NCBI RefSeq assembly: GCF_000739615.1
Contig: NZ_BATP01000020.1
Span: forward strand, 1 to 64,000
Source: Haloferula sp. BvORR071
GTDB taxonomy: Bacteria; Verrucomicrobiota; Verrucomicrobiia; Verrucomicrobiales; Akkermansiaceae
Direction: 5' to 3'
Length of the DNA: 64,000 bases
The notes below the pieces were generated by a model. The model was not told the origin of the DNA and searched no databases. It saw only the letters and a program-made list of their open reading frames with translations. Within the stretch, counting starts at the first letter, position 1, and the number at the start of each line of letters is the position of its first letter. The position numbers were made by a program, and so were the translations under genes. This document shows positions 31,428-52,391 of the stretch, one piece after another.

Positions 31428-32951
31428 CTAACAGGCTCCCTTGCGGTTGAAGAAGGTCATCACCAGGATCTGAAGATCGAGGAAGAAGTTCCAGTTCTCG
31501 ATGTAATCGAGATCGAACTTCACGCGCTCACGCAGACAGGTATCACCGCGCAAGCCGTTGACCTGGGCCCAGCCGGTGACGCCAGGCTTGATGTTGTGGC
31601 GCACATTGTAGTGCGGGATTTCCTCCTTGAAGCCCTCGATCAATTCCGGGCGCTCAGGACGCGGGCCTACGAGGCTCATCTCGCCATGCAACACGTTGAG
31701 GAACTGCGGCAGTTCGTCGATGTTCCATTCGCGCATGAAGGCTCCGATCTTGAGGCGGCGGGGGTCGTCCTTCACGGTCCAGCCGGGAGCTCCGCTGGCC
31801 TCAGCATCGACCTTCATCGAGCGGATCTTGAGGATATTGAAGGGGCGGCCGTTCAGGCCGATGCGGCGCTGCTTGTAGAAGATCGGGCCGCGGGATTCCA
31901 TGCGGACCAAGATCCCGAAAACCGCGATCAGAGGGGCGAAGAGCACCAAGCCGACCAAGGCGCCGACGATATCGATGCCGCGCTTCAGCGCATTGTTGAA
32001 GGTGTGGTGAAGCGGCAGCTTGCCGATACCGAGGACCGGCATGCCGTGGAAGCTTTCGATCTGGAGGCCGGAGACAAGAATCTGGAAGCAGCTCGGGACC
32101 AGCTTGAAGTCGACGAACTCCTTGCCGCAGGTTTCCGCGAGCAGGAGCATCTGGTGGCGGTCCATGCAACCGTCCACCGCCATGATCAGGTCGGCACCAG
32201 ACTCGCGGACGGTTTCGCGGAAGTCGTTGTAGCCTCCCAGCACCGGCACATCCGCCGGCGGCTCGGAGTCGAGCTCGCCATTCGGCGGCAGGATCACGCC
32301 ATGCACATTGATCTGGTGGGCGCGGCCTTCACCGAAGCGTTCGATCGCACGACTGCACTCATCATTCCAACCGACGAAGACGGCCTTCTGGCGCAGCGCA
32401 TTTGCGAAGGAATCGCGGCGCAACACGCAATAGAGGAACCAGCGCCAGGCGCTGAGCATGACCACAGAGATCAGCGCGGCGATCACGCAGTAAACGCGGC
32501 TGATCGCCGGATCAATCTTGAGGATCAAGGTGAGGCCGAGGAAGCCAACCAGCCACATCGCGCAGGTCTTCACGATCACGACGACGGTGCTGCGGATCGC
32601 GAGATAGTTCCGAGGGTCGTGAACGCGGAAGTTCGCGAGCATCACCAACATCATCAAGCCACCGAAAATGACGTGGCCGAGGTAGCCGCGCAGGCTGATG
32701 GCGGGATCGTCCACGCCGAAACTCTGGAGGCCGGATTCGAAGCGCAGGACGTACGCCAACATCATCGCGCCGAAAACCACCGCGGCATCACCGAGGAAGC
32801 TGGTGATGACGAGTTTCTGGTGAGCCACCCAAGGGCGGTGACGGTGTCGAAGGGCAAAAGTGTTCGGATTCTCGTCTATCGAGAGGTCCGGGGGGGGCGC
32901 TGCCGGGGAAGCAGACGTCTCCACGGATGGTGCCGGGGGTGCACAATTCAT
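31428..32951 (-). CDS. WcaJ-like polyprenyl-phosphate sugar-1-phosphate transferase
   Basis: 507 residues. About five membrane helices in the N-terminal half with a nucleotide-binding-like loop domain (ETSASP start, then LVITSFLGDAAVVFGAMML). The C-terminal transferase domain at about 320-507 has KRGIDIVGALVGLVLFAPL, the FYKQRRIGLNG segment, FNILKIRSM, LPQFLNVLHGEMSLVGPRPE and PGVTGWAQVNG. It transfers a hexose-1-phosphate from a UDP-sugar to undecaprenyl phosphate, starting repeat-unit assembly. It is encoded 104 bases after the Wzc-like gene and just before the flippase. The exact sugar is not predictable from sequence alone. Confidence 0.92.
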   Translation of the reverse strand: MNCAPPAPSVETSASPAAPPPDLSIDENPNTFALRHRHRPWVAHQKLVITSFLGDAAVVFGAMMLAYVLRFESGLQSFGVDDPAISLRGYLGHVIFGGLMMLVMLANFRVHDPRNYLAIRSTVVVIVKTCAMWLVGFLGLTLILKIDPAISRVYCVIAALISVVMLSAWRWFLYCVLRRDSFANALRQKAVFVGWNDECSRAIERFGEGRAHQINVHGVILPPNGELDSEPPADVPVLGGYNDFRETVRESGADLIMAVDGCMDRHQMLLLAETCGKEFVDFKLVPSCFQILVSGLQIESFHGMPVLGIGKLPLHHTFNNALKRGIDIVGALVGLVLFAPLIAVFGILVRMESRGPIFYKQRRIGLNGRPFNILKIRSMKVDAEASGAPGWTVKDDPRRLKIGAFMREWNIDELPQFLNVLHGEMSLVGPRPERPELIEGFKEEIPHYNVRHNIKPGVTGWAQVNGLRGDTCLRERVKFDLDYIENWNFFLDLQILVMTFFNRKGAC

Positions 32952-35910: not shown

Positions 35911-37164
35911 TCAGAAGCGGTAGCCCATTTCGACGCCGGCTGTGTGGCTGTCGTAACCGAGGCCGGGGCGATTCGAGGAATTTTCCGAATAGCGGTAGAA
36001 CAGGCCCATGCTGAAATCGTCTGTGAAACGGTACTCGAGCGCAGGACGAATGAAGTGGATGTTATCCACGCGGCCCGCGGGGGCGGTGCCGGAAACCTGA
36101 GTGTAGCTAGCACGCTCCGCCCCGGCTTCCAAGCGCGCACTCCACTTCTCGCCGAGGCGCTGGGCGATGCCGAGCGCGACGCCGGTCTGGGAGTAGTTCT
36201 GGCCCGGAGTGTAGGCAGAGGCCTGCTCGCGGCGGTAGCCATTCAAGTAGAACTCGGTGCCTTCGCGGGGCATCCAGCCGACACGACCTTCGAGAACCGG
36301 GTTGGTGTCCGAGCCATTGTCGAAGCTGCGGTGCTCGCCACCGAGCTCAAGGTCGACGGCAACCTTCTGGGTGGGCATCCACTCAAGTCGGCCGGTGACG
36401 CGGTGGACGGTCTGTTTGCCTGCGCCATCCACCTCGAAGTTGCCGCCGCGGTAGATCAGACCAAGGCGGGTCTTGGGCGAGTGGGTGTAGCGCAGGGCGA
36501 CCTCACCGAAGGTGTGGCTGGAGTCCGCGAACCGCGAGGAGTCGTAGGAAATGGATTCGTAGCCGCCGCCGGCTTCGACGCTGACCTTCTCGCGAACTGA
36601 CCAGGCTATGCGGACCGCAGTCGAAAGTTCAGTGCGGTCGGTGAGGGTGCCGGTATCCGCGGTGGCATCGCCGAGCTGGCCGACCGAGCCCTGCCAAGAA
36701 ATCTGGGTCTTCTTGCCGCGCCAGCCGAGATCCCATTCGGCGACCTGGTCGACGCGGTCGTTGTCACTGTGGTCGAGGTAGGCGACGCCGGTGGGCTTGT
36801 AGGCGACCTGGAGGTAGCCGCCCTCGCCCGTGTTCTTGTCACCACGGCGATAGGCGATCGCCGGTGAGACGCGGATCACCGTATCCGACTCCGGGCGGCG
36901 GGCACTGAGGTAGATATTGCTCTCGTAGGCAGCGGAGACATTGACGCCCATCTGGAGCTCCTGCTCGCGGACCTCACCGGCCTGAGGGTCAAAGCGGTAG
37001 CCGCTGCCACGGGGCACAATCGCGCTGTCCACCTCCCCGCTCAAGCGACCGGGAGCAGTGGAATGCACCTCCTCGCCGGGAGCAGAAGCCACCAGCCCGG
37101 CCGCCAGATTGGCAACAAGGAGAGATGGCAACACCCGGGGGGTTTGGGGCGTGCGACGGGACAT
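35911..37164 (-). CDS. Outer-membrane beta-barrel protein of the exopolysaccharide operon
   Basis: 417 residues. A signal region at about 10-28 precedes a short N-terminal stretch and then an all-beta body with alternating patterns (VNVSAAYESNIYLSARRPES; TFGEVALRYTHSPKTRLGLIYR; EFYLNGYRREQASAYTPG) ending in an aromatic (GVEMGYRF). The YESNIYLS opening is common to BBP2-type barrels found in exopolysaccharide loci. It is the first gene of the operon, divergent from the NRPS cluster. The likely role is to help polymer export or anchoring at the outer membrane; evidence is positional. Confidence 0.78.
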   Translation of the reverse strand: MSRRTPQTPRVLPSLLVANLAAGLVASAPGEEVHSTAPGRLSGEVDSAIVPRGSGYRFDPQAGEVREQELQMGVNVSAAYESNIYLSARRPESDTVIRVSPAIAYRRGDKNTGEGGYLQVAYKPTGVAYLDHSDNDRVDQVAEWDLGWRGKKTQISWQGSVGQLGDATADTGTLTDRTELSTAVRIAWSVREKVSVEAGGGYESISYDSSRFADSSHTFGEVALRYTHSPKTRLGLIYRGGNFEVDGAGKQTVHRVTGRLEWMPTQKVAVDLELGGEHRSFDNGSDTNPVLEGRVGWMPREGTEFYLNGYRREQASAYTPGQNYSQTGVALGIAQRLGEKWSARLEAGAERASYTQVSGTAPAGRVDNIHFIRPALEYRFTDDFSMGLFYRYSENSSNRPGLGYDSHTAGVEMGYRF

Positions 37165-37431
37165 GCGAACGGGAAACAGCGGGCAGATCCTAAAATTTCC
37201 ACCCCCTCGAAGGCAAGGAATTTCAAAATTCCAAACCTTACGAGATCACGTAATGCCCTCCATGTGACTTCCTGATAGAAGGAAGTTAGCACGTTCCAGC
37301 GGCGGATTTTGGCCATCCAAGAGCCCTTCCCACCGCTGGAGCGATGAGAATGAGAAGGAGATCGCGCGGATTGCCAGACCGTCGGTTTTTCAATATTTTC
37401 ACTGCACCCACCCCCCCGTCGCCAGCCCCCC
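37165..37431. promoter_or_regulatory. Divergent control region between EPS operon and NRPS/PKS cluster
   Basis: 267 bases separate two large divergent operons. A perfect inverted repeat, ACTTCC (37267-37272) and GGAAGT (37281-37286), lies about 100 bases from the EPS start and 145 bases from the NRPS start and could be a shared operator. The stretch is AT-richer than its surroundings near 37375-37400 (TTTTTCAATATTTTCACTG), a plausible promoter for the rightward genes. The NRPS ATG is preceded by a run of C residues and has no Shine-Dalgarno match. Confidence 0.4.
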
Positions 37432-39237
37432 ATGACCGCTGTCCCCCAAGCGCAGGAAGCCCTGCTTCTGCTCGACCGATTTCTTGCCCCTTTTGAAGCC
37501 CGAGCCCGCCGGGCACCGGATGAAACGGTGATCGTGGCAGGCGAGCGAAGCCTGAGCGCGGCTGATCTCGAGGCGCGCGCGAATCGTCTGGCCCGGCATC
37601 TCCAGACCATGGGTGTGTGCCCCGGTGTCTATGTGGGGATTGGCTTGGGCCGCTCGATCGAATTGATCGTGGCGCTGCTGGCGGTGGTGAAGGCGGGCGG
37701 GGCCTATGTGCCGCTCGATCCCGGCTACCCGCGCGAGCGACTGGACCACATGGTGGCCGCGGCGGGACTGAAGCTGGTGATCACGCTGCCGGAGCTGGCG
37801 GGGAACTTCAATGCGACGGCGGTGGACGTGAATGATGCGGCGCTGGAGGAACTCTCCCCTGCCCCGGTGAGCAGCTTCGCGACGGCGGAGGATCCGATGT
37901 ATGCGATCTTCACCTCGGGCTCCACCGGTCAACCGAAAGCGGCATCGGTCTTCCGCAAGGGCTTTGCCAATCTGGTGGAATGGTACCTGGCGGAACTGGG
38001 CGCGGATCATAGGACGCTGGTGATCAGCTCGCCGAGCTTTGACCTGACGCAGAAGAATTTCTTCGCGCCACTGCTAGGCGGTGGCCTGCTGGTGCTGGAT
38101 GAGGGCACGACCTACGATATCTCCCGTATCAGCAGGATGATGCGCAGTCATGGCATCACGCTGGTGAATTGCACGCCGAGTGCCTTCTACCCGCTGGTGG
38201 AAGCGGATGGGGCGGCGTTGGCGAGCGTGCGTTTCGCGGTACTGGGCGGCGAGCCGATTTCGATTCCGCGCCTGCGCGCCTGGCTGGAAACTGGCGCGGC
38301 GGAGGTGGTGAATACCTATGGGCCCACTGAGTGCACGGACATCTGCGCCTTCTACCGAATGCAAGGGCGGAATCTGGATGCCTTTGGCTTCGTGCCGCTG
38401 GGACATGAGATCCCGAATGTGAGGGTGACGATTCGCGATGAGGATCTGGCGGTAGTGCCGGATGGCGAGATGGGCGAGCTGTGCATTGCGGGCATTGGTC
38501 TCGGTGGCGGTTATCTCAACGATGCGGAGCGGACTCGGAAGGCTTTCGCGCTGGCCGGCGGGGTCTATCGCACGGGTGACTTGGCGCGGCGGTTGCCATG
38601 CGGGACTCTGGAGTTCCGCGGGCGGGCCGACCACCAGGTGAAGGTGAATGGCTATCGAATCGAGCTCGGCGAGATCGAGATCGCACTGGATACTCATGAA
38701 GCCGTGCGGGAAGCCGTAGTGCTGGCGCGCGATGGCCGGCTGACGGCACATGTGCGGGGCACGGCAACGGCGGCGGAACTGAAGACCCATCTCGCGACGA
38801 AGCTGCCTGCCTACATGATCCCGGGTGAGTTTGTTTTCCGGGACAGCTTTCCGCTTACCCCGAATGGAAAGATCGATCGCTTGGCTTTAGCTACTGAGGA
38901 GAATAGCTCCCATGGGTTTCATCGGACAAATGATGGCTCGCTGGTGGAGCGGATTCTCGGACTATGGAGCGATCTGCTAGAGAAAGAGGTCAGCGATCCT
39001 GAGGCGAACTTCTTCGATCTCGGTGGCACTTCCATTCACCTGGCCGTGATGCACGTGAAGCTGCGCGAGATGAGCGGCAAGGAGCTGGCGATCACGGATC
39101 TCTTTGCACGGCCGAGCGCGAAGGCGCTGGCAGATTTCCTTTCGCCCCAAGCGGCGGCCACCACCTCAAGCGCGCAAGATCGCGCGCGACTGCAACAGGC
39201 AGGCCTCGCGCGTTTCCGTCGCCCTTCCCCCCGCTAA
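37432..39237 (+). CDS. NRPS loading protein, A-T
   Basis: 601 residues. Adenylation domain at about 20-485: A3 TSGSTGQPK (161-169), A4/A5 region SFDLTQKNFF (202-211) and NTYGPTE (294-300), A7 YRTGDLARR (379-387), A8 RADHQVKVNGYRIELGE (398-414), A10 NGKID (478-482, catalytic Lys480). The carrier domain at about 505-575 has FFDLGGTSIHL with phosphopantetheine site Ser534. There is no starter condensation domain, so it probably loads the first acid. My hand-aligned specificity residues are D-L-K-N-V-G-T-D-I-K, which I cannot match to a substrate. It is 9 bases upstream of the PKS/NRPS gene, so cotranscribed. Confidence 0.93.
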   Translation: MTAVPQAQEALLLLDRFLAPFEARARRAPDETVIVAGERSLSAADLEARANRLARHLQTMGVCPGVYVGIGLGRSIELIVALLAVVKAGGAYVPLDPGYPRERLDHMVAAAGLKLVITLPELAGNFNATAVDVNDAALEELSPAPVSSFATAEDPMYAIFTSGSTGQPKAASVFRKGFANLVEWYLAELGADHRTLVISSPSFDLTQKNFFAPLLGGGLLVLDEGTTYDISRISRMMRSHGITLVNCTPSAFYPLVEADGAALASVRFAVLGGEPISIPRLRAWLETGAAEVVNTYGPTECTDICAFYRMQGRNLDAFGFVPLGHEIPNVRVTIRDEDLAVVPDGEMGELCIAGIGLGGGYLNDAERTRKAFALAGGVYRTGDLARRLPCGTLEFRGRADHQVKVNGYRIELGEIEIALDTHEAVREAVVLARDGRLTAHVRGTATAAELKTHLATKLPAYMIPGEFVFRDSFPLTPNGKIDRLALATEENSSHGFHRTNDGSLVERILGLWSDLLEKEVSDPEANFFDLGGTSIHLAVMHVKLREMSGKELAITDLFARPSAKALADFLSPQAAATTSSAQDRARLQQAGLARFRRPSPR

Positions 39238-39246
39238 CAATATCCG

Positions 39247-42200
39247 ATGAACGAAGAGCTCCCCCCAGCAGAAGCGATCGCGGTGATCGGCATGTCCGGG
39301 CGTTTTCCCGGTGCGGGGAATCCGGATGAATTCTGGCAGAACCTGATCGCGGGCAAGGATAGCATCACCCGCTTCGAGAGCCGCGTGGAGAGCGATGGCA
39401 GCAAGTATGTGGGGGCCCGTAGCATGTTCGACAAGCCGGACATGTTCGATGCTTCTTTCTTCGGGATCTACCCGAAGGAGGCCGAGCTGATGGACCCGCA
39501 GCACCGGGTATTCCTGGAGTGCGCGTGGGAAGCGATTGAGCATGGCGGCTACGATCCGCATGCCTATGCGGGCATGATCGGCGTTTACGCAGGTCTGAGC
39601 TTGAACTCCTATCTCTTGCACAATCTGGGCAAGGCCAAGGAGCTGGCGAAGAACTACCAGGTGGCCGAGTACCAGACGATGCTCGGCAATGACAAGGACT
39701 TCCTGCCGGTGCGGGTGAGCTACAAGCTCAACTTGCGCGGCCCGAGCATGACGATCCAGACGGCGTGCTCGACCTCGCTGGTGGCGATCTGCCAGGCGGC
39801 CACCTCATTGCTGACGTATCAGTGCGACATGGCACTGGCGGGCGGGGTTTCGATCAGCTTCCCGCAGCAGCGTGAGTATCTCTATACCGAGGAAGGCATG
39901 GTGTCGGGCGACGGCACGGTGCGGGCTTTTGATCAAGGTGCAAATGGCACTGTCTTCGGGCACGGCTGCGGCGTGGTCCTGCTGAAGCGCTTGAGTGAAG
40001 CGGTGGCGGACCGCGATCCGATCCTGGCGGTGATCAAGGGCTGGGCGGTGAACAACGATGGCTCGGACAAGATTGGCTTTGCCGCGCCGGGATTGAACGC
40101 ACAAGCGGAGGTGATTGCCTTGGCGCAGGCATCCGCGGGGGTGAGCCCGCAGCAGGTTTCCTATATTGAGGCGCATGGCACAGGGACACCGCTCGGCGAT
40201 CCGATTGAGATCGCGGCTCTGACAAAGGCGTTCCGCGATGGTGGTGCGGTTGGAAATGGGTATTGCGCGATCGGGACGGGCAAGACTCACATCGGGCATC
40301 TGGATGTGGCGGCGGGGGTGACTGGTCTTATTAAGACGATCCAGCAGTTCCGGTTTGGGAAGATCCCGGCTTTGCTGCACTTCACCGCGCCAAATCCGCG
40401 GATTGATTTTGCGAATAGCCCCCTGGCTCCGGTGGCGGAGATGAAGGAGTGGTTGAAGAATGGTACGCCGCGGATTGCGGGCGTCAGCGCCTTCGGTGTG
40501 GGTGGAACGAATGCGCATGTAGTGATGGAGGAGGCGCCGGAGGTGACGGCGACGAGTGGAGGGAGGAAGCAAGAGTTGTTTGTTTTGTCCGCCAAGACGG
40601 CCACGGCGCTTGAGGCGATGTCCGCGAACCTTGCGGCTCATATGGAGTGCGGTGGCATGACACCGCTTTCGCTCCGGGTTGGTGATGCTGCGGTGGGCGG
40701 AACCGGATCGGCGGAGAGTGAGTCTTCCCCAAGCCAAAGCGGTGTCGTGCCACCGCACTCCACAGGGCTTTCCGATGTGTCGTATACGCTGGCGATGGGC
40801 CGACGTGCCTTTCCCTTCCGCCGCCATGTGGTGGCAGGGAGTGTGGAAGAGGCGGTTGCGAAGCTGCGGGAGGGCGCGAAGTCGAGCGCTGCGCCGAAGG
40901 CGGCGAAGGTTGCGTTTCTGTTTCCCGGTCAGGGTTCGCAGTATTTGAACATGGGCCGTGAGTTGCTTGCGGAGCCAGCCTTCCGCGAGGCGGTGGATAT
41001 ATGCGCCTCGCTGCTGCAAGGGCATCTGGGATTGGATATCCGGGAGACGCTTTATCCTTCGGAAGCCACGCGCGATGAGGCGGAACAGCGAATTCACCAG
41101 ACTTGGCTGACGCAGCCGTGCATCTTCGTGGTGGAGTATGCGCTTGCAAAGCTGTGGATGTCCTGGGGCGTTCAGCCTTGTCTTCTGATCGGACATAGCG
41201 TCGGCGAGTATGTCGCGGCGGTGCTGGCTGGGACTTTCTCTTTGCCGGATGCGCTGGGTCTGCTGGCGGTGCGTGCACGCCTGATGCAGGGGCTGCCTTC
41301 AGGAGCGATGCTGGCGGTGCGGCAGGGCGTGGATGAACTGGCGCTGCCGGAAGGAATTTACTTGGCGGCAATCAATTCGCCGAAGCTTTGCACGGTGTCC
41401 GGCTCGCATGAGGCAATCGCGGCCTATCAAGCTGAGCTGGAGGAGAAGAAGATTGTCAGCCGCCTGCTGAAGACTTCACACGCCTTCCACTCGGCGATGA
41501 TGGAGCCGATGGTGGCGCCCTTCACGGCAGAGGCCGCGAAGGTGAGGACGAATGCGCCGACGATTCCCTGGATCTCGACTTGCACGGGCAAGGCGATGAA
41601 TGCGACGACGCTGGCCGACGCCTCCTATTGGGCGCGGCAGCTGCGGCATGAGGTGCGCTTCACTGATGCGCTGGCAACCGCCTATGCGGAGCAAGGCCTG
41701 GTCTTGCTGGAAGTCGGGCCAGGGCAGGCGCTCGGGCCATTTGCACGGCAGCATCCGGACAAGGGTGGCGCCACGGTGATCTCCACCCTGCCTGCTTCTA
41801 ACACCGCGAACGACCTGGCGGATCTGCTGAATGCCGCCGGCGAACTCTGGAAGGCTGGCACGACGCTGGACTGGACCGCCTTCTTCGCCGGACAGGAGCG
41901 CGCACGCGTGCACCTGCCGACTTACCCCTTCGAGCGCCAGAGCTTCTGGATCGACAAATCCGTTGAAGTCGAAGCTCCGGTGGCCGCGCCTGCGGGTGTT
42001 GCCGTTCCGTCCCCCCTTTCCGTTTCTGCTCTTCCCCCAAGCCCCCCTGTCATGTCTGCCCCCGCTGACCGCCGTCCTGATCTTGCCGCAAAGCTGCGCG
42101 CGATTGTCCTCGATCTCTCCGGCGTGGCCGTGGAGGACGATGCCGCGACCTTCACTGAACTTAGCTTCGATTCGCTTTTCCTGACTCAAGCCGCGCAGGC

Positions 42201-45200
42201 GATCCAATCGCGATTCGGCGTGAAGATCACCTTCCGGCAGATGTTGGGCGAGCTTTCGTCGGTGGCGGCCATTGCGGTGCACCTCGACAAGGAGATGCCT
42301 GCGGAGGTGGTGAGTGCGCCAGTTGCAGTGGCGGCTCGGGTGGTGGCTGCGCCTACGACAGCCGCCTTACTTCCGCCCGCAGCGAACGGTGGCACGACCA
42401 TCGAGCAACTGATGGCGAATCAGATTCAACTGATGCAGGCACTGTTGGAATCCCAGCGGGGCGCGACACCGGCTGCGGTTGCTCCGGCTGCCAGCGGCAA
42501 TCTTCCCGCGGTGAAGTGGCCCGTGGGCCACACGCGCAATGCCGTCACCAACACCCGCTTTGGCCCCTTCAAGCCGATCGACAAGGGCGAGAACGGTGGA
42601 TTGACCGAGACGCAGGACAAGGCCCTGAGCGAGCTGATCAGCCGCTACGTCCGCAAGACTGCTTCCTCGAAGGCTTATACTGCAGAACACCGCGAGCACT
42701 ATGCGGACCCGCGCGCGGTCGCGGGCTTCAAATCGCTGTGGAAGGAGATGGTCTATCCGATCGTTTCCGCGCGTTCGAAGGGCGCGAAGATCTGGGACCT
42801 CGACGGCAATGAGTATGTCGATATCACGATGGGCTTCGGCACCTACTTCTTCGGCCACTCGCCGGATTGGTTGATCGAGGCAGTCGAGAAGCAGCTCAAG
42901 ACCGGCATCGAAATCGGGCCGCAGTCGCCGATCGCGGGCAAGCTCGCCAAGGCGATCTGCGAGCTGACGAACATGGATCGCGCGACCTTTTGCAACACCG
43001 GCTCCGAAGCGGTGATGGCGGCGATGCGGCTCTCCCGGACGATCACGGGACGGACGCGGATCGCGTATTTCACCGGCGACTACCACGGCATGTTCGAGGA
43101 AGTGCTGGTGCGCGGTGCCTGGGTGGATGGCGTTTACAAGGCTCAGCCGATCGCGCCGGGCATCCCGCAATCGCTGGTGGAGAACATGCTGGTGCTGGAC
43201 TACGCGGATCCGGCCTCGCTGGAGATCCTGCGGGCGCATGCGCATGAGCTGGCGGCAGTGATGGTCGAGCCGGTGCAGAGCCGCGCGCCGGGCCTGCAGC
43301 CGCGCGAGTTCATGCAGGAGGTCCGCGCGATCACGAAGGCCGCAGGCACTGCCCTAATCTTTGATGAAGTGGTGACCGGCTTCCGCTGTCATCCGGGCGG
43401 TGCGCAGGCATACTTCGGCGTTGATGCGGACTTGGCGACCTATGGCAAGGTCATCGGCGGCGGCATGCCGATCGGCGTCCTGGCCGGCAAGCGCGAGTAC
43501 ATGGATGCGCTTGATGGCGGGGCCTGGAACTACGGTGATGATAGTTTCCCGGAGGTCGGCGTGACCTTCTTCGCGGGCACTTTTGTCAGGCATCCGCTGG
43601 CACTGGCCGCGGCTTGGCGCGTGGTGGAGCACCTGAAGGGTGAAGGCCCACGTTTGCAGATCGAGGTGACGGAGCGGGTGGATCGCCTGTGCCGCACCTT
43701 GAATGACTATCTCGCAGCGATCGGGGTTCCGATCCGCCTGCCGAACTTCAGTGCCTACGCGGTGATCGAACACGCGCCGGAGCTGAAGCATGCGAGTCTG
43801 CTGTGGTACTTCCTGCGCGAGCGCGGGGTGCACGTGTGGGAGGGCCGTCCGCTCTACTTCACGACGGCTCACACGGATGAAGATTTCGACCGGATTATAC
43901 GCGGCTTCACCGAAGCGGTGGCCGACATGCAGGCAGCAGGCTTCTTGCCCGGCTCCAGTGCGGTGGTGGAAGCGCCGACGGTATTCCCGCGGCGTGACGT
44001 CTCGCTGACGACCGAGGCGCAGCGTGAGATTTTCCACTCGCTGATGATGGGAGATGACGCGAACTGCTCCTACAACGAGTCGAACGTGATCCGCTTCGAG
44101 GGTGAGCTGGATGCGGGTGCGCTGCGCACTGCGCTGGCGGACATCGTGACACGCCACCCGGCGCTGCGCAGCTCCTTCAGCGAGGATGGGCAGCAGCAAA
44201 TTTTCCACGCCGCACCGCGCGAGGCGGCGGTGACGGCGCATGATTTCTCCGCGCTGACGGCTGATGTCCGCGAGATGAACTGGGCGCAGACCAAGGAGGA
44301 TGAGGCCCGCACGCCCTTCGACTTGGTGCAGGGGCCGCTGCTTCGCCTGCAACTCGCGAAGCTGACCGCGGATCGCCACGAGCTGCTCTTCACCGCACAT
44401 CACCTGGTGTGCGACGGCTGGTCCTTCGGGATGATCCTGATGGAGCTGGCGCAGGCCTACAATGCACGCAAGGCGAGCCGACTGCCGATGCTTCCGCCAG
44501 CGATGTCCTTTGCGGATTACGCGCGACTCGAGCTTTCCAACAAGGATTCCGAGGAGCGTGGCGCCGCAGAAAATTTCTGGGTGGCCAAGTTCTCGAATGG
44601 TGCCCCGGTGCTGGAGCTGCCGACTGACCGGGCTCGCCCGCAACTGAAGACCTATGCCGGTGCGATGGAAGCGATCACGCTGGATGCGGAGGGCTACGCA
44701 CGGCTCAAGAAGGCATCCCCGAAGCTGGGCGGAACCTTGTTTGCGACCCTGCTTGGCACCTTCGCCACGCTATTGCATCGGCTTACAGGCCAGGACGATC
44801 TGGTGATTGGCGTGCCGGCGGCGGGTCAGACCCGCGTGGGCCGCGATGAGCTGGTGGGGCATTGCCTGAACTTCCTGCCGCTGCGCCTGAATACGGCTGC
44901 AGAACGCTCCTTCCGGACCTTCGCCGCAGAGGTGAAGGAACAGGTGCTCGAAGCCTATGATCACCAAGACTACACCTTCGGCAGCCTGCTGAAGAAACTG
45001 ACCTTGCCGCGCGATACGAGTCGCCTGCCGTTGGTGACGGTGATGTTCAATATCGACAAGTCGGGCAGTGACCAGATCGGCTTCGATGGCCTGGGCTTCG
45101 ATGTGGCGACGAATCCGAAGCGCCACGTCAACTTCGACCTCTTCTTCAACCTCGTGCAGACCGACGAGCGGATGATCGTGGAGTGCGAGTATAACACCGA

Positions 45201-48200
45201 CCTGCATGATGCCGCGACAATCCGCCGCTGGCTCGGCTGCTTCGAGCAACTGATCGAGAGCGTGACCGCGGATGGCGATACCGCGCTGCAATCGCTGCCG
45301 ATCCTGGCGGCGACCGAGAGCAAGCAGGTTCTGGTGGAGTGGAATGCGACGCAGCGGGAGTATCCGCGCACGGCTACCCTCCCTTGCTTGATCTCGCATG
45401 TCGCGGCGCGGGTGCCGGAGAAGGCGGCCGTGAGCTGTGGCTCGCAGGCCCTGACATACGGCCAGCTGGAGCTCCGGGCGAATGCGATCGCGGCGCGCTT
45501 GCAAATCGCAGGCGTAAAGCGCGGCCACCTGGTGGGCATTCACCTCGAACGCTCGACCGAGATGGTCGCGGGCCTGCTGGCGATCCTGAAGTGCGGCGCG
45601 GCCTATGTGCCGATGGACCCGAGTTTCCCAGCGGAGCGGCTGGCCTTCATGGTGGAGGATGCGCACATGCCGGTGATCCTGTCGCAGACGTCGCTGCACC
45701 GCGAGCTACCGGCCTCGCAGGCGACCGTGTTGCTGGCGGATGAGATTCCGGGCGATGCTTCCGGGTTTACTTCGGTGAAAGTCGATAGCGAGGATACCGC
45801 CTATGTGATCTTCACTTCCGGCTCGACCGGTCGACCGAAGGGCGTGCGGATCCCGCACCGTGCGGTGGTGAATTTCCTGAACTCGATGCGCCGTGAGCCG
45901 GGCCTGAGGCCGGATGATGTGTTGCTGGCGGTGACAACACTGTCCTTCGACATCGCGGGGCTGGAGATCTTCCTGCCGGTGACGACGGGTGCTGAAGTGG
46001 TGATCGCGACACGGGAGATCACGATCGACGGCAACCGCCTTGCTGAGACCATTTCGAGCAAGAATATCACGGTGTTGCAGGCGACGCCAGCGACCTGGCG
46101 GCTCTTGCTAGAGGGTGGCTGGAGCGGCAAGCCGGGCTTCAAAGCCCTGGTCGGAGGAGAAGCGGTGCCACGCGATTTGGTGAACCGACTGGCTCCCCTG
46201 TGCGGCGAGATCTGGAATGTCTATGGCCCGACCGAGACGACGATTTGGTCGACCACGGCGCAGGTTTTCGCGGGTGAAGGCCCGGTATTGATCGGTCGCC
46301 CGATCGACAATACGCAGGTGTATATCGTGAACAATGCGATGCTGCCGCAGCCGGTGGGTATCGCTGGTGAACTATTGATCGGCGGCGATGGCTTGGCGGA
46401 AGGTTATCATGACCGCCCGGACCTGACCGCGGACCGCTTCATCACGCTGCAGGGTGTGAGGCTGTATCGCACCGGTGACTTGGCGCGCTGGTTGCCAGAT
46501 GGCAGCATCGAATGCTTGGGCCGCATGGATCACCAAGTGAAGGTGCGCGGCTTCCGGATCGAGCTGGGGGATATTGAAACTCACCTTGAGCAACACCCGG
46601 CGGTGGCGCAGGCAGTGGCGCATGTAAATGACGGCCGCCTCATTGCCTATGTGAAGACCGGTGCCAATGGTGGCAACGGCAGCGACGGCACGGCGATCTG
46701 GCGCGACCAGTGGGATCTGCTCTACAAATCCGCGATCGACCAATCGGGCAGCGACAGGCTGGATCGGCTGGATTCGGTGATCGCTGGTTGGGCCGGCGCG
46801 ACGGATATCGACGCCCAGGTCGGCGAGTGGATCGATGCGACGGCAGCGCGGTTGCGGAAGTATGGTCCGCGCCGTATTTACGAGATCGGTTGTGGCACGG
46901 GGCAAATCCTGTCGCGCTTCGCGAGCGAGACCGAGGTCTACTGGGCATCGGACATTTCCGAGGTGGCGATCGAGGCGCTGCGAAAGAATTGGCCGCACCC
47001 TCACCTGAAGTTCTTCCACCGTCCGGCGGATGAGTTCACGGATATTCCCGCGCAGTATTTCGATACCGTGGTGATCAACTCGGTGGCGCAGTATTTCCCC
47101 GATGCCAACTACCTCGCGAAGGTGCTTCAGGGCGCGGCGAAGTGCCTGAGACCCGGTGGGCGTATTTTCCTGGGCGACATCCAGAGCAATGCGCTGCTGG
47201 CGGCCCACCATGCGGAGATTCTACGCGAGCGCTCGCCTGATGGCACCACGTGCCGACAGTTGCGTGAAAAGGTGGCACAGAGATTGGCGCGTGAGACCGA
47301 GCTGTCGCTCGATCCTGCGTGGTTCGATCGCGTGGATGTTCCTGGGCTTGCCCATGCGGAGATCCAACTGCGCCGCGGCCGGATGGCGAATGAGACGACG
47401 ACTTATCACTACGACGTGATTCTCCACATCGGCGAGAAACCGGCGGTGCAACTGGTGACCAAGTGGCGGCAATGGGAGCGACTGAATTTGGAACAGCTTG
47501 AAGCGATTTTGGCGGAAGGCCCGGATGAGCTGGCGATCGCGGGCATTCCGGATGTGCGCTTGAATTCACCACTGGGTTTCCTGCGGGCTCTGGAACATTC
47601 ACCGGAAGATGGGCCACTGCCCTTCGCCCCTGGCGTTCCTGGCAATGCGCTTTCCGCGGAGGCGCTCTTCGCCGTGGCGGAGTCCACCGGCTACCGGGCA
47701 CATGTCCGCTGGCGGGGCAATGGCACGGCAGGCCTGATCGACGTGATCTTCCTTCCCGCGGGCAGCGGAGCGTTGCCGCTGTGGCCGATCCAATCGACGC
47801 CGGCTCCGCTCGCGAATGTGCCGTGGCAAGACGCACCGAGCGCATCGGGCGGCGAGCTGCCCGCACTGCTGCGGCTGCACCTGACGGGCAAACTGCCGGA
47901 CTATATGGTGCCGACGGCATTCGTGGTGCTGGAGAACTTCCCGCTTACGCCCAATGGCAAGGTAGACCGCAAGGCCCTGCCTGCCCCGGGTGTGGGTGAA
48001 GAAGCCTCCGCCCGCGACATTGCCCAACCGAAGAACGAGACCGAGCGCCAGCTCGTCGAGATTTGGAAGCAGGTGCTCGGCTTGAAGGAGATCGGCGCCA
48101 CGGATGACATCTTCGAGCTCGGTGGCGATTCGATCCTGATCTTCCAGATTAGCACGAGGGCGACCCGTGCCGGACTGAAGCTCACCCCAGCGCAGGTCTT

Positions 48201-48315
48201 CCGGCACCGCAATATTGCGGCAATCGCCGCGGATCTAACCGCAGCACCGGAGCCGGCTGCGGCCGGAAGCACGATCCAGCGGGTAAACCGCGATGCCTAC
48301 CGCCGGAAGTCCTAA
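39247..48315 (+). CDS. Hybrid PKS-NRPS megasynthase KS-AT-ACP-AMT-C-A-MT-T
   Basis: 3022 residues. KS (10-430): Cys174 in TACSTS, His310 in EAHGTG, His348 in KTHIGH. AT (555-860): Ser651 in GHSVGE, with HAFH (745-748) indicating malonyl-CoA. ACP with Ser976 (SFDSLF). Class III aminotransferase (1130-1570): IFDEV (Asp1373) and PLP Lys1401. Condensation (1590-2010): HHLVCDG (1718-1724). Adenylation from 2035: A3 at 2190, code D-I-L-Q-L-G-V-I-W-K by hand, close to the published glycine code. A SAM methyltransferase (EIGCGTG 2546-2552) is inserted after A8, the N-methyltransferase position. A10 is Lys2905 and the carrier site is Ser2962. No KR, DH or ER was found. The expected chemistry is malonyl extension, beta-transamination, and addition of N-methylglycine. 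Confidence 0.95.
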   Translation: MNEELPPAEAIAVIGMSGRFPGAGNPDEFWQNLIAGKDSITRFESRVESDGSKYVGARSMFDKPDMFDASFFGIYPKEAELMDPQHRVFLECAWEAIEHGGYDPHAYAGMIGVYAGLSLNSYLLHNLGKAKELAKNYQVAEYQTMLGNDKDFLPVRVSYKLNLRGPSMTIQTACSTSLVAICQAATSLLTYQCDMALAGGVSISFPQQREYLYTEEGMVSGDGTVRAFDQGANGTVFGHGCGVVLLKRLSEAVADRDPILAVIKGWAVNNDGSDKIGFAAPGLNAQAEVIALAQASAGVSPQQVSYIEAHGTGTPLGDPIEIAALTKAFRDGGAVGNGYCAIGTGKTHIGHLDVAAGVTGLIKTIQQFRFGKIPALLHFTAPNPRIDFANSPLAPVAEMKEWLKNGTPRIAGVSAFGVGGTNAHVVMEEAPEVTATSGGRKQELFVLSAKTATALEAMSANLAAHMECGGMTPLSLRVGDAAVGGTGSAESESSPSQSGVVPPHSTGLSDVSYTLAMGRRAFPFRRHVVAGSVEEAVAKLREGAKSSAAPKAAKVAFLFPGQGSQYLNMGRELLAEPAFREAVDICASLLQGHLGLDIRETLYPSEATRDEAEQRIHQTWLTQPCIFVVEYALAKLWMSWGVQPCLLIGHSVGEYVAAVLAGTFSLPDALGLLAVRARLMQGLPSGAMLAVRQGVDELALPEGIYLAAINSPKLCTVSGSHEAIAAYQAELEEKKIVSRLLKTSHAFHSAMMEPMVAPFTAEAAKVRTNAPTIPWISTCTGKAMNATTLADASYWARQLRHEVRFTDALATAYAEQGLVLLEVGPGQALGPFARQHPDKGGATVISTLPASNTANDLADLLNAAGELWKAGTTLDWTAFFAGQERARVHLPTYPFERQSFWIDKSVEVEAPVAAPAGVAVPSPLSVSALPPSPPVMSAPADRRPDLAAKLRAIVLDLSGVAVEDDAATFTELSFDSLFLTQAAQAIQSRFGVKITFRQMLGELSSVAAIAVHLDKEMPAEVVSAPVAVAARVVAAPTTAALLPPAANGGTTIEQLMANQIQLMQALLESQRGATPAAVAPAASGNLPAVKWPVGHTRNAVTNTRFGPFKPIDKGENGGLTETQDKALSELISRYVRKTASSKAYTAEHREHYADPRAVAGFKSLWKEMVYPIVSARSKGAKIWDLDGNEYVDITMGFGTYFFGHSPDWLIEAVEKQLKTGIEIGPQSPIAGKLAKAICELTNMDRATFCNTGSEAVMAAMRLSRTITGRTRIAYFTGDYHGMFEEVLVRGAWVDGVYKAQPIAPGIPQSLVENMLVLDYADPASLEILRAHAHELAAVMVEPVQSRAPGLQPREFMQEVRAITKAAGTALIFDEVVTGFRCHPGGAQAYFGVDADLATYGKVIGGGMPIGVLAGKREYMDALDGGAWNYGDDSFPEVGVTFFAGTFVRHPLALAAAWRVVEHLKGEGPRLQIEVTERVDRLCRTLNDYLAAIGVPIRLPNFSAYAVIEHAPELKHASLLWYFLRERGVHVWEGRPLYFTTAHTDEDFDRIIRGFTEAVADMQAAGFLPGSSAVVEAPTVFPRRDVSLTTEAQREIFHSLMMGDDANCSYNESNVIRFEGELDAGALRTALADIVTRHPALRSSFSEDGQQQIFHAAPREAAVTAHDFSALTADVREMNWAQTKEDEARTPFDLVQGPLLRLQLAKLTADRHELLFTAHHLVCDGWSFGMILMELAQAYNARKASRLPMLPPAMSFADYARLELSNKDSEERGAAENFWVAKFSNGAPVLELPTDRARPQLKTYAGAMEAITLDAEGYARLKKASPKLGGTLFATLLGTFATLLHRLTGQDDLVIGVPAAGQTRVGRDELVGHCLNFLPLRLNTAAERSFRTFAAEVKEQVLEAYDHQDYTFGSLLKKLTLPRDTSRLPLVTVMFNIDKSGSDQIGFDGLGFDVATNPKRHVNFDLFFNLVQTDERMIVECEYNTDLHDAATIRRWLGCFEQLIESVTADGDTALQSLPILAATESKQVLVEWNATQREYPRTATLPCLISHVAARVPEKAAVSCGSQALTYGQLELRANAIAARLQIAGVKRGHLVGIHLERSTEMVAGLLAILKCGAAYVPMDPSFPAERLAFMVEDAHMPVILSQTSLHRELPASQATVLLADEIPGDASGFTSVKVDSEDTAYVIFTSGSTGRPKGVRIPHRAVVNFLNSMRREPGLRPDDVLLAVTTLSFDIAGLEIFLPVTTGAEVVIATREITIDGNRLAETISSKNITVLQATPATWRLLLEGGWSGKPGFKALVGGEAVPRDLVNRLAPLCGEIWNVYGPTETTIWSTTAQVFAGEGPVLIGRPIDNTQVYIVNNAMLPQPVGIAGELLIGGDGLAEGYHDRPDLTADRFITLQGVRLYRTGDLARWLPDGSIECLGRMDHQVKVRGFRIELGDIETHLEQHPAVAQAVAHVNDGRLIAYVKTGANGGNGSDGTAIWRDQWDLLYKSAIDQSGSDRLDRLDSVIAGWAGATDIDAQVGEWIDATAARLRKYGPRRIYEIGCGTGQILSRFASETEVYWASDISEVAIEALRKNWPHPHLKFFHRPADEFTDIPAQYFDTVVINSVAQYFPDANYLAKVLQGAAKCLRPGGRIFLGDIQSNALLAAHHAEILRERSPDGTTCRQLREKVAQRLARETELSLDPAWFDRVDVPGLAHAEIQLRRGRMANETTTYHYDVILHIGEKPAVQLVTKWRQWERLNLEQLEAILAEGPDELAIAGIPDVRLNSPLGFLRALEHSPEDGPLPFAPGVPGNALSAEALFAVAESTGYRAHVRWRGNGTAGLIDVIFLPAGSGALPLWPIQSTPAPLANVPWQDAPSASGGELPALLRLHLTGKLPDYMVPTAFVVLENFPLTPNGKVDRKALPAPGVGEEASARDIAQPKNETERQLVEIWKQVLGLKEIGATDDIFELGGDSILIFQISTRATRAGLKLTPAQVFRHRNIAAIAADLTAAPEPAAAGSTIQRVNRDAYRRKS

Positions 48316-48371
48316 CGCGAATCCGGAATTCCCAAGTTCCACCAATCGTGTTCATCCTCTCCTCCAGCCCG

Positions 48372-51300
48372 ATGAGCCAAGCGCCCCAGACCCAAGACGC
48401 GACTGCTGCCCCTGCCGGGGATGGTGAGGAGCTGCTTGCCTTCCCGGCGTCGATCGCGCAGCAGGTTTTCTGGTACCTCGAGCTGCTGCAGCCTGAGGTC
48501 ACGGCATTCAATATCCCAATGCGGTTCCGTCTGGAAGGGCCGCTCGAGCTTGGCCTGCTAGAGCGGAGCCTGCGAACAATCATCGAGCGCCACGAGGCAC
48601 TGCGGACGCACTTCGAGGAAGATGAGGGCGAGCTGCTGCAGATCGTGCGGCCAAATGCGAACTTGACGCTGCCGCTGCACGATCTCACGGCGCTCCCGGA
48701 GAACGAGCGGCAGGCGGAGGCGGATCTCCTAGGCAGCATCGAGGCGCAGCGGCCCTTCCATCTAGCGACCGGTCCGGCCTTCCGGGCAGAGCTGGTGCGG
48801 CTCTCGACCACGGTGCACATTTTGCATGTCACGGTGCATCATGCGCTCTTCGACGGCTCGTCGATGACGGTGCTGACTGAAGAGCTGGCGACGATCTATC
48901 AGGCCTATTTCGAGGGCCGCGATTGCCCACTCGATGCGCCGCCGATCCAGTATGGCGACTTCAGCGTGTGGCAGAAGGAGTTCCTGGCCGGGCCGGAGAT
49001 CGCCAAGCAACTGGCCTATTGGAAGCAGCGTCTGGCCGGGATGACCGAGCTGGACCTGCCAACCGACCGGCCGCGGCCTCCGGTGAAGACTTGGAGCGGT
49101 GATCTGATCTCCGCCCTGCTGCCGAAGGAGCTGACCCAGCGGCTGCAAGCGATCGCCTCGCGTCACGGGGCTACGCTCTATCATCTACTGCTCGCGGCGT
49201 ACAAGACCCTGCTCCACCGCTACAGTGGCAGCACGGACATCGCGATCGGCTCGCCGATCACAGGTCGCACGCGTGCCGAGCTGGAGCCACTGATCGGGGT
49301 TTTCATCAACTCGCTGATTCTGCGCAGCGATCTCTCTGGCGACCCTCCTTTCGAGTCGCTGCTCTGCCAAGTGCGGGATACCGCGCTGGAGGCGGTGGAG
49401 AACCAGGAATTGCCCTTCGAGTGCCTGGTGAGAGCGGTCAAACCGGAGCGTGATCCGAGCCGCAATCCGCTGTTCCAAGTGAATTTCACGCACCAGCGTT
49501 CTTTCGCGAAGGCCGGGCGCTTTGGCGGAGTCGAGCTGATCCCGATCCCCTCGCGCTCACCGGGCGCGATCTTCGACCTGCACTTCTTCATGGTCGAGCG
49601 GGCCGAAGGTTGGCGGGTGACCTGCGACTACAGCAGCGATCTCTTCGACCGAGCCACGGCGGAGCGGATGCTCGGCCACTACCGGCAGCTGCTGGAGAAC
49701 ATCGCGGCGGATCCGGCCAAGCCGATCTCGCAGCTGGAAATCCTGACGCCGGCGGAAAAGCAAACGATCCTCGGCGAGTGGGCGGGAAGCACCAGTGAGT
49801 ATCCACGCGATTCCAATATCGCGGCACTGTTCATCGAAACGGCGAAGGCGAATCCGGAGCGGACCGCACTGGTGTATGGATCGAGGTCCTTCACCTACTG
49901 GCAGATGCTGACGGAAGCCTCTGCCATCGCATCCAAACTGGAAGGCGCTGGCCTGCGCGCTGGAGAATTGGTGGCACTCAGCGCCAAGCCATCACCGGAG
50001 ATGATCACCGGCCTGCTAGGCATCCTGCTGGCTGGCGGTGCCTATGTGCCGCTGGATCCGGACTATCCGGCGGAGCGCTTCACGCTGCTGTTAGAGGAGA
50101 GCAGCGCAAAGCTGGCACTCGCGGCGCCCGGCTGCAGTGGAACCTTCGAAGGATGGCACGGCAAGGTGGTCGAGATCCCTCAAGCGGGTCACGCCTCACC
50201 CTTCAACGCCACGCCGGAGCCGTTGTTCGGAGCTGAGCATCCGGCCTACCTGCTCTTCACCTCCGGCTCGACTGGCACGCCGAAGGGCGTATTGGTGCCG
50301 CATCGTGCGGTGCTGCGCTTGGTGCGCGGTTGCGACTTTATTTCGATCACGCCGGAGGACGTCTTTCTGCAGGCCGCGCCCTTGTCCTTCGATGCGTCCA
50401 CAGTGGAGATCTGGGGCCCGCTGCTGAATGGCGGCAAGCTGGTGATCCCCTCCGGCGGGACCGGCTTGCAAGAAATCGCGAGCGCCGTGCGGGAGCAGGG
50501 CGTGACCACCCTGTGGCTCACCGCGGGCTTGTTCCAAGTGATGATTGAAGAGCACGCGGAGGCCCTGCGCGGCCTACGTTACTTGCTCGCGGGCGGCGAC
50601 GTCCTCTCTGTGCCACACGTGCGCCGCGCGCTGGAGATGCTGCCCGGCACCACGCTGATCAATGGCTACGGGCCCACCGAGAATACCACCTTCACCGCAT
50701 GCCACCGGATCTCGCTGGAGGATTGCGAACGGCCATCGATTCCGATTGGCCGCCCGATTGCGAATACCACAGTCTACATCGTCGATGAACAGGGCCGCAC
50801 ACTACCCGCCGGCATCCCTGGGGAACTGCTCACCGGCGGCGACGGCCTCGCGCTGGGCTATCACAACGATCCAGCCCTGACAGCAGAGCGCTTCATTTCG
50901 AACCCCTCGCTCTCCGCTCAAAGCTCCAGGCTCTACCGTACCGGAGATCTCTGCCGCTGGCTGGCGGATGGCACGATCGAATTCATCGGCCGGCGCGACC
51001 AACAGGTAAAGGTCCGCGGCTTCCGCATCGAACTAGGCGAGATCGAGGCTGCGCTCGCCTCGCATCCCGAGGTCCGCCAATCGAAGGTAGCGGTACGCGG
51101 CGCCAGCTCGGAAACGAAGCGGATCCTCGCTTGGGTGATGACCGAGCAGGGCAGCCTGCTGGATGCCAACTCCCTCTCGGCATGGCTGGCCACACGCCTA
51201 CCTGCCTATCTCCGCCCGGACGGCGTGGCGCTGGTGGAGCAGTTCCCGGTCACCGCAAATGGCAAGATCGACGTCGCCGCGCTGCCGGACCCCGCGCAGG

Positions 51301-52391
51301 CGGCGGCCAGCGAGAGCAAGCCCTTCTCCCCACCGCAGGGCGAAACCGAACAAAAGCTCGCCGCACTATGGAGCGAACTACTACAAGTTCCGGAAATCGG
51401 CCGCGATGATGACTTCTTCGCGCTCGGTGGCCACTCGCTAATGGCGCTGCGCCTATTCTCGCGGCTGAACCGCGAGTTTGGCCAAAGCTTGCCGCTTGCT
51501 GCGCTCTTGAATCATCCCACGGTGGCTCGCCTCGCCGCCTTGCTCGCGCCCCAAGACATCGCGGCAACTCCGGCTGCGGCCTCCAAGGGCAAAGGTCACT
51601 TGGTCACGCTCTCCCCGGAGGGCAGTGGCACTCCTCTTTTCTGCCTGCATGGCGGTGATGGAGGGGTGCTCTTCTACCGCGATCTGGCGGAGAAGATGCC
51701 AAAGTCCTACCCGCTGCACGCGATCGAGTCCCTGAACCTCAGCAATAGCGGGCCCATCCATCCAGGGTCGGTCGAAGAGACCGCAGCGGCTTATGTGCAA
51801 ATGCTTCTGAAGGTGCAGCCCGGCGGTCCCTATCGCCTCGCGGGCTATTCCTTCGGCGGCGTGGTCGCGCACGAGATGGCCTGTATCCTCCAGGAGCGCG
51901 GACATCAGGTAGAATTCGTCGGACTCTTCGACACCCACAATCCGGTCGCTCCCGCCAAGCGTTACACGCTGACCGGCCGCTTCAATGCCTTCTGGCAGCA
52001 GCAGCACGACTTGCCCTTGCCCGCGCGTCTCGAGCGCCTGCGCGAACGGATCGCCGAGGGCATCGCGACCAACCGCCGCGTGAAGGCCGAGCTGGCCGAA
52101 GCCTTCGGCAGCGGTCCGGCGGAGGCGCACAGCGACCTGCGCCGCGTGCAAGTGCGCGAGGAGAACTGGCGCGCCATGCAGGCCTACAAACCGCGACGCT
52201 TCCACGGCAAGCTGACCCTCTTCAAGGCGATAAGCTTGAGCGACAAGGTCCAGTGGCCGGAAGACTACGGTTGGCGCGAGTATGCCGGCGGCGGACTGGA
52301 AATCGTGCCAGTGCCCGGAGGCCACCTCACCCTCTTCAATTCCGAGAATGTGTCTGCGCTGGCTGCTGCCCTGGCGGCAAAGTTGGGTTGA
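48372..52391 (+). CDS. Terminating NRPS module C-A-T-TE
   Basis: 1339 residues from ATG48372; a GTG eight codons upstream is the only alternative, and neither has a clear ribosome site. Condensation domain at about 20-450 with HHALFDG (156-162). Adenylation at about 485-975: A3 SGSTGTPKG, A4 FDASTVEIWG, NGYGPTE, A8 RDQQVKVRGFRIELGE, and A10 NGKID. The hand-read code is D-A-V-W-L-A-G-T-F-K, closest to published valine-type codes. Carrier GGHSLMAL with Ser1022. Thioesterase at about 1080-1335: LFCLHGGDGG and GYSFGG with nucleophile Ser1160. The TE releases the product by hydrolysis or cyclisation. It is the last gene of the three-gene line, 56 bases after the PKS-NRPS gene, ending 13 bases from a converging gene. 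Confidence 0.94.
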   Translation: MSQAPQTQDATAAPAGDGEELLAFPASIAQQVFWYLELLQPEVTAFNIPMRFRLEGPLELGLLERSLRTIIERHEALRTHFEEDEGELLQIVRPNANLTLPLHDLTALPENERQAEADLLGSIEAQRPFHLATGPAFRAELVRLSTTVHILHVTVHHALFDGSSMTVLTEELATIYQAYFEGRDCPLDAPPIQYGDFSVWQKEFLAGPEIAKQLAYWKQRLAGMTELDLPTDRPRPPVKTWSGDLISALLPKELTQRLQAIASRHGATLYHLLLAAYKTLLHRYSGSTDIAIGSPITGRTRAELEPLIGVFINSLILRSDLSGDPPFESLLCQVRDTALEAVENQELPFECLVRAVKPERDPSRNPLFQVNFTHQRSFAKAGRFGGVELIPIPSRSPGAIFDLHFFMVERAEGWRVTCDYSSDLFDRATAERMLGHYRQLLENIAADPAKPISQLEILTPAEKQTILGEWAGSTSEYPRDSNIAALFIETAKANPERTALVYGSRSFTYWQMLTEASAIASKLEGAGLRAGELVALSAKPSPEMITGLLGILLAGGAYVPLDPDYPAERFTLLLEESSAKLALAAPGCSGTFEGWHGKVVEIPQAGHASPFNATPEPLFGAEHPAYLLFTSGSTGTPKGVLVPHRAVLRLVRGCDFISITPEDVFLQAAPLSFDASTVEIWGPLLNGGKLVIPSGGTGLQEIASAVREQGVTTLWLTAGLFQVMIEEHAEALRGLRYLLAGGDVLSVPHVRRALEMLPGTTLINGYGPTENTTFTACHRISLEDCERPSIPIGRPIANTTVYIVDEQGRTLPAGIPGELLTGGDGLALGYHNDPALTAERFISNPSLSAQSSRLYRTGDLCRWLADGTIEFIGRRDQQVKVRGFRIELGEIEAALASHPEVRQSKVAVRGASSETKRILAWVMTEQGSLLDANSLSAWLATRLPAYLRPDGVALVEQFPVTANGKIDVAALPDPAQAAASESKPFSPPQGETEQKLAALWSELLQVPEIGRDDDFFALGGHSLMALRLFSRLNREFGQSLPLAALLNHPTVARLAALLAPQDIAATPAAASKGKGHLVTLSPEGSGTPLFCLHGGDGGVLFYRDLAEKMPKSYPLHAIESLNLSNSGPIHPGSVEETAAAYVQMLLKVQPGGPYRLAGYSFGGVVAHEMACILQERGHQVEFVGLFDTHNPVAPAKRYTLTGRFNAFWQQQHDLPLPARLERLRERIAEGIATNRRVKAELAEAFGSGPAEAHSDLRRVQVREENWRAMQAYKPRRFHGKLTLFKAISLSDKVQWPEDYGWREYAGGGLEIVPVPGGHLTLFNSENVSALAAALAAKLG

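What the first reader, a model, noticed from the sequence alone, without database searches (positions are those of the whole stretch)
37432..52391. Hybrid NRPS/PKS line predicting a 3,4-diamino-acid-sarcosine-valine-type peptide
Domains read directly: A-T; KS-AT(malonyl)-ACP-aminotransferase-C-A-MT-T; C-A-T-TE. With no KR, DH or ER, the beta-keto group made by KS should be transaminated. If the loading A domain takes an alpha-amino acid, colinearity gives a 3,4-diamino acid, followed by an N-methyl residue and a hydrophobic residue, then TE release. Aminotransferase-containing PKS modules are known in iturin and microcystin pathways, but there they act on fatty or aromatic chains. This combination is unusual and I do not know a described product from this phylum matching it.
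Basis: partly seen in the sequence, partly recalled or inferred. Interest (0 to 1): 0.75.

Follow-up and report, generated by a model that had tools for sequence, protein, structure and literature searches.

The report
Exopolysaccharide-linked diamino-peptide assembly line
A three-gene bacterial assembly line probably joins homoserine, a malonate unit that is then aminated, N-methylglycine and valine into a small diamino peptide, and it and many of its relatives sit beside polysaccharide-export genes, which suggests that the peptide may belong to the cell's slime coat rather than being a free antibiotic.

Summary
Observation confirmed: window 37432-52391 encodes intact A-T / KS-AT-ACP-AMT-C-A-MT-T / C-A-T-TE, no KR, DH or ER. 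The 3,4-diamino-acid idea is supported and sharpened: the loading A code (DLKNVGTDI) differs by two positions from each of two published homoserine codes, giving 3,4-diamino-6-hydroxyhexanoyl-sarcosyl-valine. It is not rare: relatives loading Thr, Val or Pro occur in several phyla. Such a block adjoins 25 of 27 lines inspected in the family, including 7 of a second, FkbH-started type; two g4 lines lack it. Among 260 family genomes the line is in 31, the barrel in 32, both in 30. In 16 of 39 named genomes, from six phyla, a polysaccharide-initiating transferase lies within 30 kb (1.9 expected); 22 of 39 have none within 40 kb. A palindrome lies in the divergent gap in 12 of 18 type I loci. Best reading: a diamino acyl-peptide used with, perhaps attached to, an exopolysaccharide; attachment is inference.

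The parts
37432..39237 (+). Loading module A-T; A-domain code DLKNVGTDI(K), homoserine-like
39247..48315 (+). KS-AT(malonyl)-ACP-aminotransferase-C-A(Gly)-MT-T
42574..43926 (+). GSA-type (class III) aminotransferase domain; best solved-structure match MycA AMT of mycosubtilin synthase (6kfm); the most conserved domain of the line in 14 of 16 orthologs compared
48348..52391 (+). C-A(Val)-T-TE
35911..37164 (-). BBP2 putative outer-membrane beta-barrel of the export block
33056..35278 (-). Wzz-type chain-length protein with a weakly matched P-loop ATPase region
31428..32951 (-). Sugar-1-phosphate transferase (Bac_transf), initiates a polysaccharide repeat
30014..31417 (-). Wzx-type flippase (Polysacc_synt, 32 bits against a cut-off of 28.2)
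37238..37255 (+). Palindrome TTACGAGATCACGTAATG in the divergent intergenic region, candidate operator shared by line and export block
60548..61414 (+). PEP-CTERM protein; its homolog directly follows the TE gene in six other loci (G178, G251, G307, G446, G442, G215), separated by other genes here; membership in the unit is uncertain

Best explanation
The three genes form a colinear hybrid line. A1 loads homoserine; KS extends it with malonate; the AMT domain converts the beta-keto to a beta-amine, giving 3,4-diamino-6-hydroxyhexanoyl-ACP; the next module adds N-methylglycine, the last adds valine, and TE releases the chain (free acid, lactone or transfer, undecided). The line works as part of an exopolysaccharide system: a Wzx / sugar-phosphate transferase / Wzz / barrel block is transcribed divergently from it, perhaps under a shared operator, and the peptide is used with, perhaps as an acyl substituent of, the exported polysaccharide. 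Shown: domain order, intact motifs, codes, conservation, adjacency, palindrome. Inferred: substrates, amination, colinearity, functional coupling, attachment.
For: Domains and motifs. AMT matches MycA AMT 6kfm at 5e-132 with the YGK region conserved; a passage of PMC3870968 says that the MycA domain aminates a beta-ketothioester with Gln as donor. Hse codes (passages of PMC7524897 and PMC12283262). A-T fused to KS in 15 of 80 relatives and in the ORF just upstream in 30; a C domain precedes that A-T in 8 of these 45. Export block beside all 25 lines fetched from genera g1 and g3 (25 of the 29 line-bearing genomes there), of two line types; line in 31, barrel in 32, both in 30 of 260 family genomes. 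PF02397 within 30 kb in 16 of 39 named genomes, 1.9 expected, largest of 200,000 simulations 10. Neighbours there include Wzx, Poly_export, glycosyltransferases and an EpsH exosortase. Palindrome in the gap of 12 of 18 type I loci.
Against: The two g4 lines inspected (G237, G240) have no block gene in the 40 kb read; their barrels lie on other contigs. L131, a record named Akkermansiaceae, shows none in its 21 kb. 22 of 39 named relatives have no PF02397 within 40 kb, several on long contigs. No Poly_export gene and no glycosyltransferase is in the four-gene block. The palindrome was not found in 6 of 18 type I and in none of 6 type II loci tested. The passage says that the Hse codes are frequently accompanied by Ser/Dha. 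TE release would also fit a free peptide. No enzyme for attaching the peptide was identified.
Confidence: 0.52

Rival explanations
1. The line makes a free secreted small peptide (antibiotic, enzyme inhibitor or signal); the export block is a neighbour for regulatory reasons, such as joint expression in biofilms.
For: TE-terminated line; 22 of 39 named relatives have no PF02397 within 40 kb; g4 genomes keep line and barrel on different contigs.
Against: Adjacency in all 25 lines fetched from genera g1 and g3, although the line type differs; no resistance gene recognised among the 25 scanned ORFs; the nearest MFS gene lies 12 kb from the line and was found again only in G251 in the five stretches.
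Confidence: 0.3
2. The order is not colinear: the A-T protein acts in trans and the KS takes another starter, so no 3,4-diamino acid is made.
For: The A-T is a separate gene here; a second line type in the same family starts with an FkbH-like domain instead.
Against: A-T fused directly to KS in 15 of 80 relatives and in the ORF just upstream in 30; A-T kept in all 18 type I loci inspected.
Confidence: 0.12
3. A siderophore or metallophore line.
For: Short NRPS/PKS lines often make these (general knowledge; no call).
Against: No TonB receptor, siderophore transporter or hydroxamate/catechol gene among the 25 ORFs scanned with Pfam from 19.5 to 64 kb; no typical metal-chelating residue predicted.
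Confidence: 0.04

Closest known systems
Mycosubtilin/iturin MycA beta-amination module (KS-AT-ACP-AMT-C)
   Same: Same order around a GSA-type AMT; AMT aligns to 6kfm with 444 bits
   Different: Starter is a fatty acyl chain there (recalled); here an A domain with an amino-acid code; line beside polysaccharide-export genes
Laxaphycin/scytocyclamide lines (cyanobacteria)
   Same: AMT after PKS extension; a homoserine code DLKNFGSDVK is reported there, three positions from ours (PMC7524897, passages)
   Different: There homoserine is an internal residue and hexanoate the predicted starter; here the homoserine-like code is on the loading domain
N-acyl amino acid synthases linked to PEP-CTERM/exosortase (Craig et al. 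2011, seen only as a reference entry)
   Same: Small acyl-amino products made beside PEP-CTERM genes, by its title
   Different: Here the product comes from a modular PKS/NRPS
Acetobacteraceae type I PKS clusters with capsule and glycosyltransferase genes (PMC8776678, passages)
   Same: A PKS beside capsular-biosynthesis genes, with PLP aminotransferase genes in three of four groups
   Different: Fully reducing KS-AT-DH-ER-KR-PP type without the A-T / AMT-C-A line described here

Membership tests
MycA-type beta-aminating PKS module | KS-AT-ACP followed by class III AMT with PLP lysine, then C | tested here: met
MycA-type beta-aminating PKS module | No beta-ketoreduction domains between KS and AMT | tested here: met
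MycA-type beta-aminating PKS module | Fatty-acyl starter loaded by an acyl ligase | tested here: not met
   TIGR01733 amino-acid adenylation domain over its cut-off with Hse-like code
MycA-type beta-aminating PKS module | Amination of a beta-ketothioester shown in vitro | not testable with these tools
   needs protein
Wzx/Wzy-dependent polysaccharide locus | Initiating sugar-phosphate transferase, Wzx flippase, Wzz-type protein | tested here: met
Wzx/Wzy-dependent polysaccharide locus | Wza-type outer-membrane exporter (Poly_export) | tested here: not met
   none among the 25 ORFs scanned; a BBP2 barrel instead; the rest of the genome was not searched for it
Wzx/Wzy-dependent polysaccharide locus | Wzy polymerase and glycosyltransferases | tested here: inconclusive
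   none in the four-gene block; one glycosyltransferase at 53662, without a match in the five stretches; they may lie elsewhere
Siderophore NRPS locus | Receptor/uptake genes and chelating-group genes nearby | tested here: not met
   25 ORFs scanned

The most novel reading that the evidence does not exclude
A widespread class of short aminotransferase PKS/NRPS lines, found beside polysaccharide genes in at least six phyla and started with homoserine, Thr, Val, Pro or (by an FkbH-like domain) possibly glycerate, builds beta-amino acyl-peptides that are attached to exopolysaccharides as designed cationic or polar substituents: assembly-line chemistry used to decorate slime. In Akkermansiaceae the line type has been exchanged at least once at a fixed export block.
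Probability: 0.27. Interest if true: 0.88.

Novelty: new variant of a known kind. Interest (0 to 1): 0.62.

Why it matters
PKS/NRPS lines are mined as antibiotic makers. If a multi-phylum class of them serves exopolysaccharides, many uncharacterised clusters in soil and water bacteria should be assayed in the biofilm matrix as well as in culture extracts. Homoserine-loaded beta-amination would also be a route to a 3,4-diamino acid that I have not seen described.

Tried and rejected
Paper searches: (codes; 2 papers; 0; 2; 3; 334, 20 listed; 0; 6; 17, 10 listed; 12, 10 listed), 71 (0). I saw listings, and passages of four papers; none of what I saw describes this link, but two lists were long or cut and most subscription journals are not held.

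A recurring second palindrome site (TACGCGATCGCGTAATG) lies in one shared neighbourhood in G446 and G307 but beside other genes in G000 and G444 (by eye) and was dropped. One more site, G446:C19, lies near genes that look by eye like a glycosyltransferase and a flippase; not followed.

The control with other NRPS is weak: the 17 linked genomes gave five clearly separate NRPS places, none with PF02397 within 40 kb; other condensation domains there lie in or near the AMT loci and were not counted. The 39 genomes are 39 of those 80, picked by me mainly for long contigs; the query alignment was seeded partly with block-linked lines. The coordinates were typed over by hand; the simulation assumes even gene placement and rounded genome sizes. 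Siderophore reading rejected (no uptake gene among the scanned ORFs). In the block tree the proteins of each genome were concatenated; G237 and G459 were dropped there, and G459 in the AMT tree.

Full report
1. What is there. The catalytic motifs that I looked for are present in the window. The window is contig C47:1-64000 of a 7.8-Mb genome with three condensation-domain hits in all, two of them here. The genus includes Luteolibacter marinus: G444:C180 and the record of L075 have the same length and AMT place. That Luteolibacter belongs to Akkermansiaceae, Verrucomicrobiota, is recalled.

2. Substrates. Mapping onto the PheA pocket (ruler recalled; tenth position not read, taken as K) gives DLKNVGTDI, DILQLGVIW and DAVWLGGTF. 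DLKNFGSDVK is reported as Hse in laxaphycin lines, and DLKNVGSDVK and DLKNLGTDVK as Hse/Hsl, 'frequently accompanied by' Ser/Dha. Ours differs from the last two by two positions each and from the first by three. The Gly, Val, Ala and Pro assignments are recalled; DFWNIGMVHK stands in the Thr part of the passage. The first code is DLKN(V/I)G(T/S)DI in every type I line of the family where I read it (14 genomes). The second A domain is Gly-like in the window's genus and in G455 and G499, but DLFNNALTY (Ala-like) in G495, G475 and L093, with the MT kept. So the second residue is probably N-methyl-Gly or N-methyl-Ala.

3. Is the starter an amino acid? In the 80 named loci, A-T is fused to KS in 15, lies in the ORF just upstream in 30, another N-terminus precedes T-KS in 4, 7 fell in a rest class (among them L073, whose A-T is visible), and 24 are cut before the KS. 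In 8 of the 45 a C domain precedes the A-T (L080; L078, L092, L096, L106, L115, L125, L148), so there the KS takes a longer chain or a C-started one. Loading codes are mostly of Thr, Val and Pro types.

4. The neighbourhood. Upstream and divergent lie barrel (BBP2), Wzz-type, sugar-phosphate transferase and Wzx genes. The same four adjoin the line in all five first orthologs. In all I inspected 27 lines of family genomes. Eighteen are type I and adjoin the block (G459 shows no Wzz hit; G495 shows no Wzx hit although 18 kb further were read). Seven are a second type, FkbH-like-T-KS-AT-ACP-AMT-C-A(Val)-T-TE, with the block on their own strand downstream (G243, G277, G319, G443, G448, G452, G496; no Wzx hit in G448). 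The two g4 lines (G237, G240) show no block gene in 40 kb; their barrels lie elsewhere with Wzx, and in G240 and G540 Wzz, but without the transferase hit. 'FkbH-like' rests on reading the HAD motif by eye, not on a family match. In 260 family genomes the line was found in 31 and the barrel in 32, both in 30. Of those 30, 24 have both on one contig within 7 kb, G452 is joined, three are split between contigs (G481, G484, G514, not fetched), and two are G237 and G240. G450 has the line only (61% complete); G451 and G540 the barrel only, and G451's contig ends at the barrel. All carriers belong to 3 of 16 genera, so kinship inflates the count.

5. Exchange. In a quick tree of the concatenated block, the type II genome G243 groups with type I genomes G254 and G475 (SH-aLRT 99), so the line type seems to have changed there while the block stayed. 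The other type II genome of that genus, G496, groups with type II blocks of the window's genus (92), so the picture is mixed. The AMT tree has 3 of 21 inner branches well supported and one very long branch (G327).

6. Other phyla. In 39 genomes, PF02397 lies within 15, 30 and 40 kb of the AMT in 8, 16 and 17; 0.98, 1.93 and 2.54 were expected, and the largest of 200,000 simulations were 8, 10 and 12, so the 15-kb count is equalled by the largest simulation. The 17 span Planctomycetota, Acidobacteriota, Verrucomicrobiota, Pseudomonadota, Nitrospirota and Cyanobacteriota by record titles. The other 22 show none, including long contigs such as those of Leptolyngbya and both Edaphobacter records: the link is frequent, not universal. 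Ten of the 17 were fetched; 20 chosen proteins from seven of them include Wzx, Poly_export/SLBB, glycosyltransferases, an EpsH exosortase and a phosphopantetheinyl transferase.

7. Regulation. The divergent gap holds TTACGAGATCACGTAATG at 37238-37255 (0.01 matches expected in the window). Exact TACGNNATCNCGTAATG or the looser [TC]TACG-N6-CGTA[AG] occurs in the gap of 12 of 18 type I loci (not in G449, G215, G480, G457, G459, G495) and in none of six type II loci tested. Genome-wide the exact form has 12 places in 18 genus genomes, 7 of them at this locus; the reversed control pattern has none.

8. Verdict. The line is real, intact and conserved; the diamino-acid prediction stands as inference from domains and codes; the polysaccharide link was not in the paper listings and passages that I saw and is the more important result. 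Whether the peptide is attached to the polymer is unknown.

Noticed in passing
window 53662-60451: A glycosyltransferase, two facing GH130 (mannoside phosphorylase-like) genes and a GH20 gene separate the TE gene from the PEP-CTERM gene; in G178, G251, G307, G446, G442 and G215 the PEP-CTERM gene follows the TE gene closely.
   Followed up: partly
G327, L050-L051: A type I line whose AT region lacks GHSxG (by eye), whose AMT is strongly diverged and which gave no MT hit, with the other domains and the export block kept.
   Followed up: partly
G215, L032-L033: A further 1664-aa ORF with a match to the third gene of the line lies just after the PEP-CTERM gene.
   Followed up: no
window 61433-63986: DUF3419 protein beside a fatty acid desaturase gene and a 315-aa ORF without Pfam match, found again in G178.
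   Followed up: no
L157:1329-2756, L159:17633-19114: A PAF-acetylhydrolase-like alpha/beta hydrolase directly follows the line in 4 of 10 fetched loci of other phyla (family 5; two of the four proteins scanned).
   Followed up: no
G000:C60:206843-208141: A further condensation domain in a 1967-aa frame, away from this locus.
   Followed up: no
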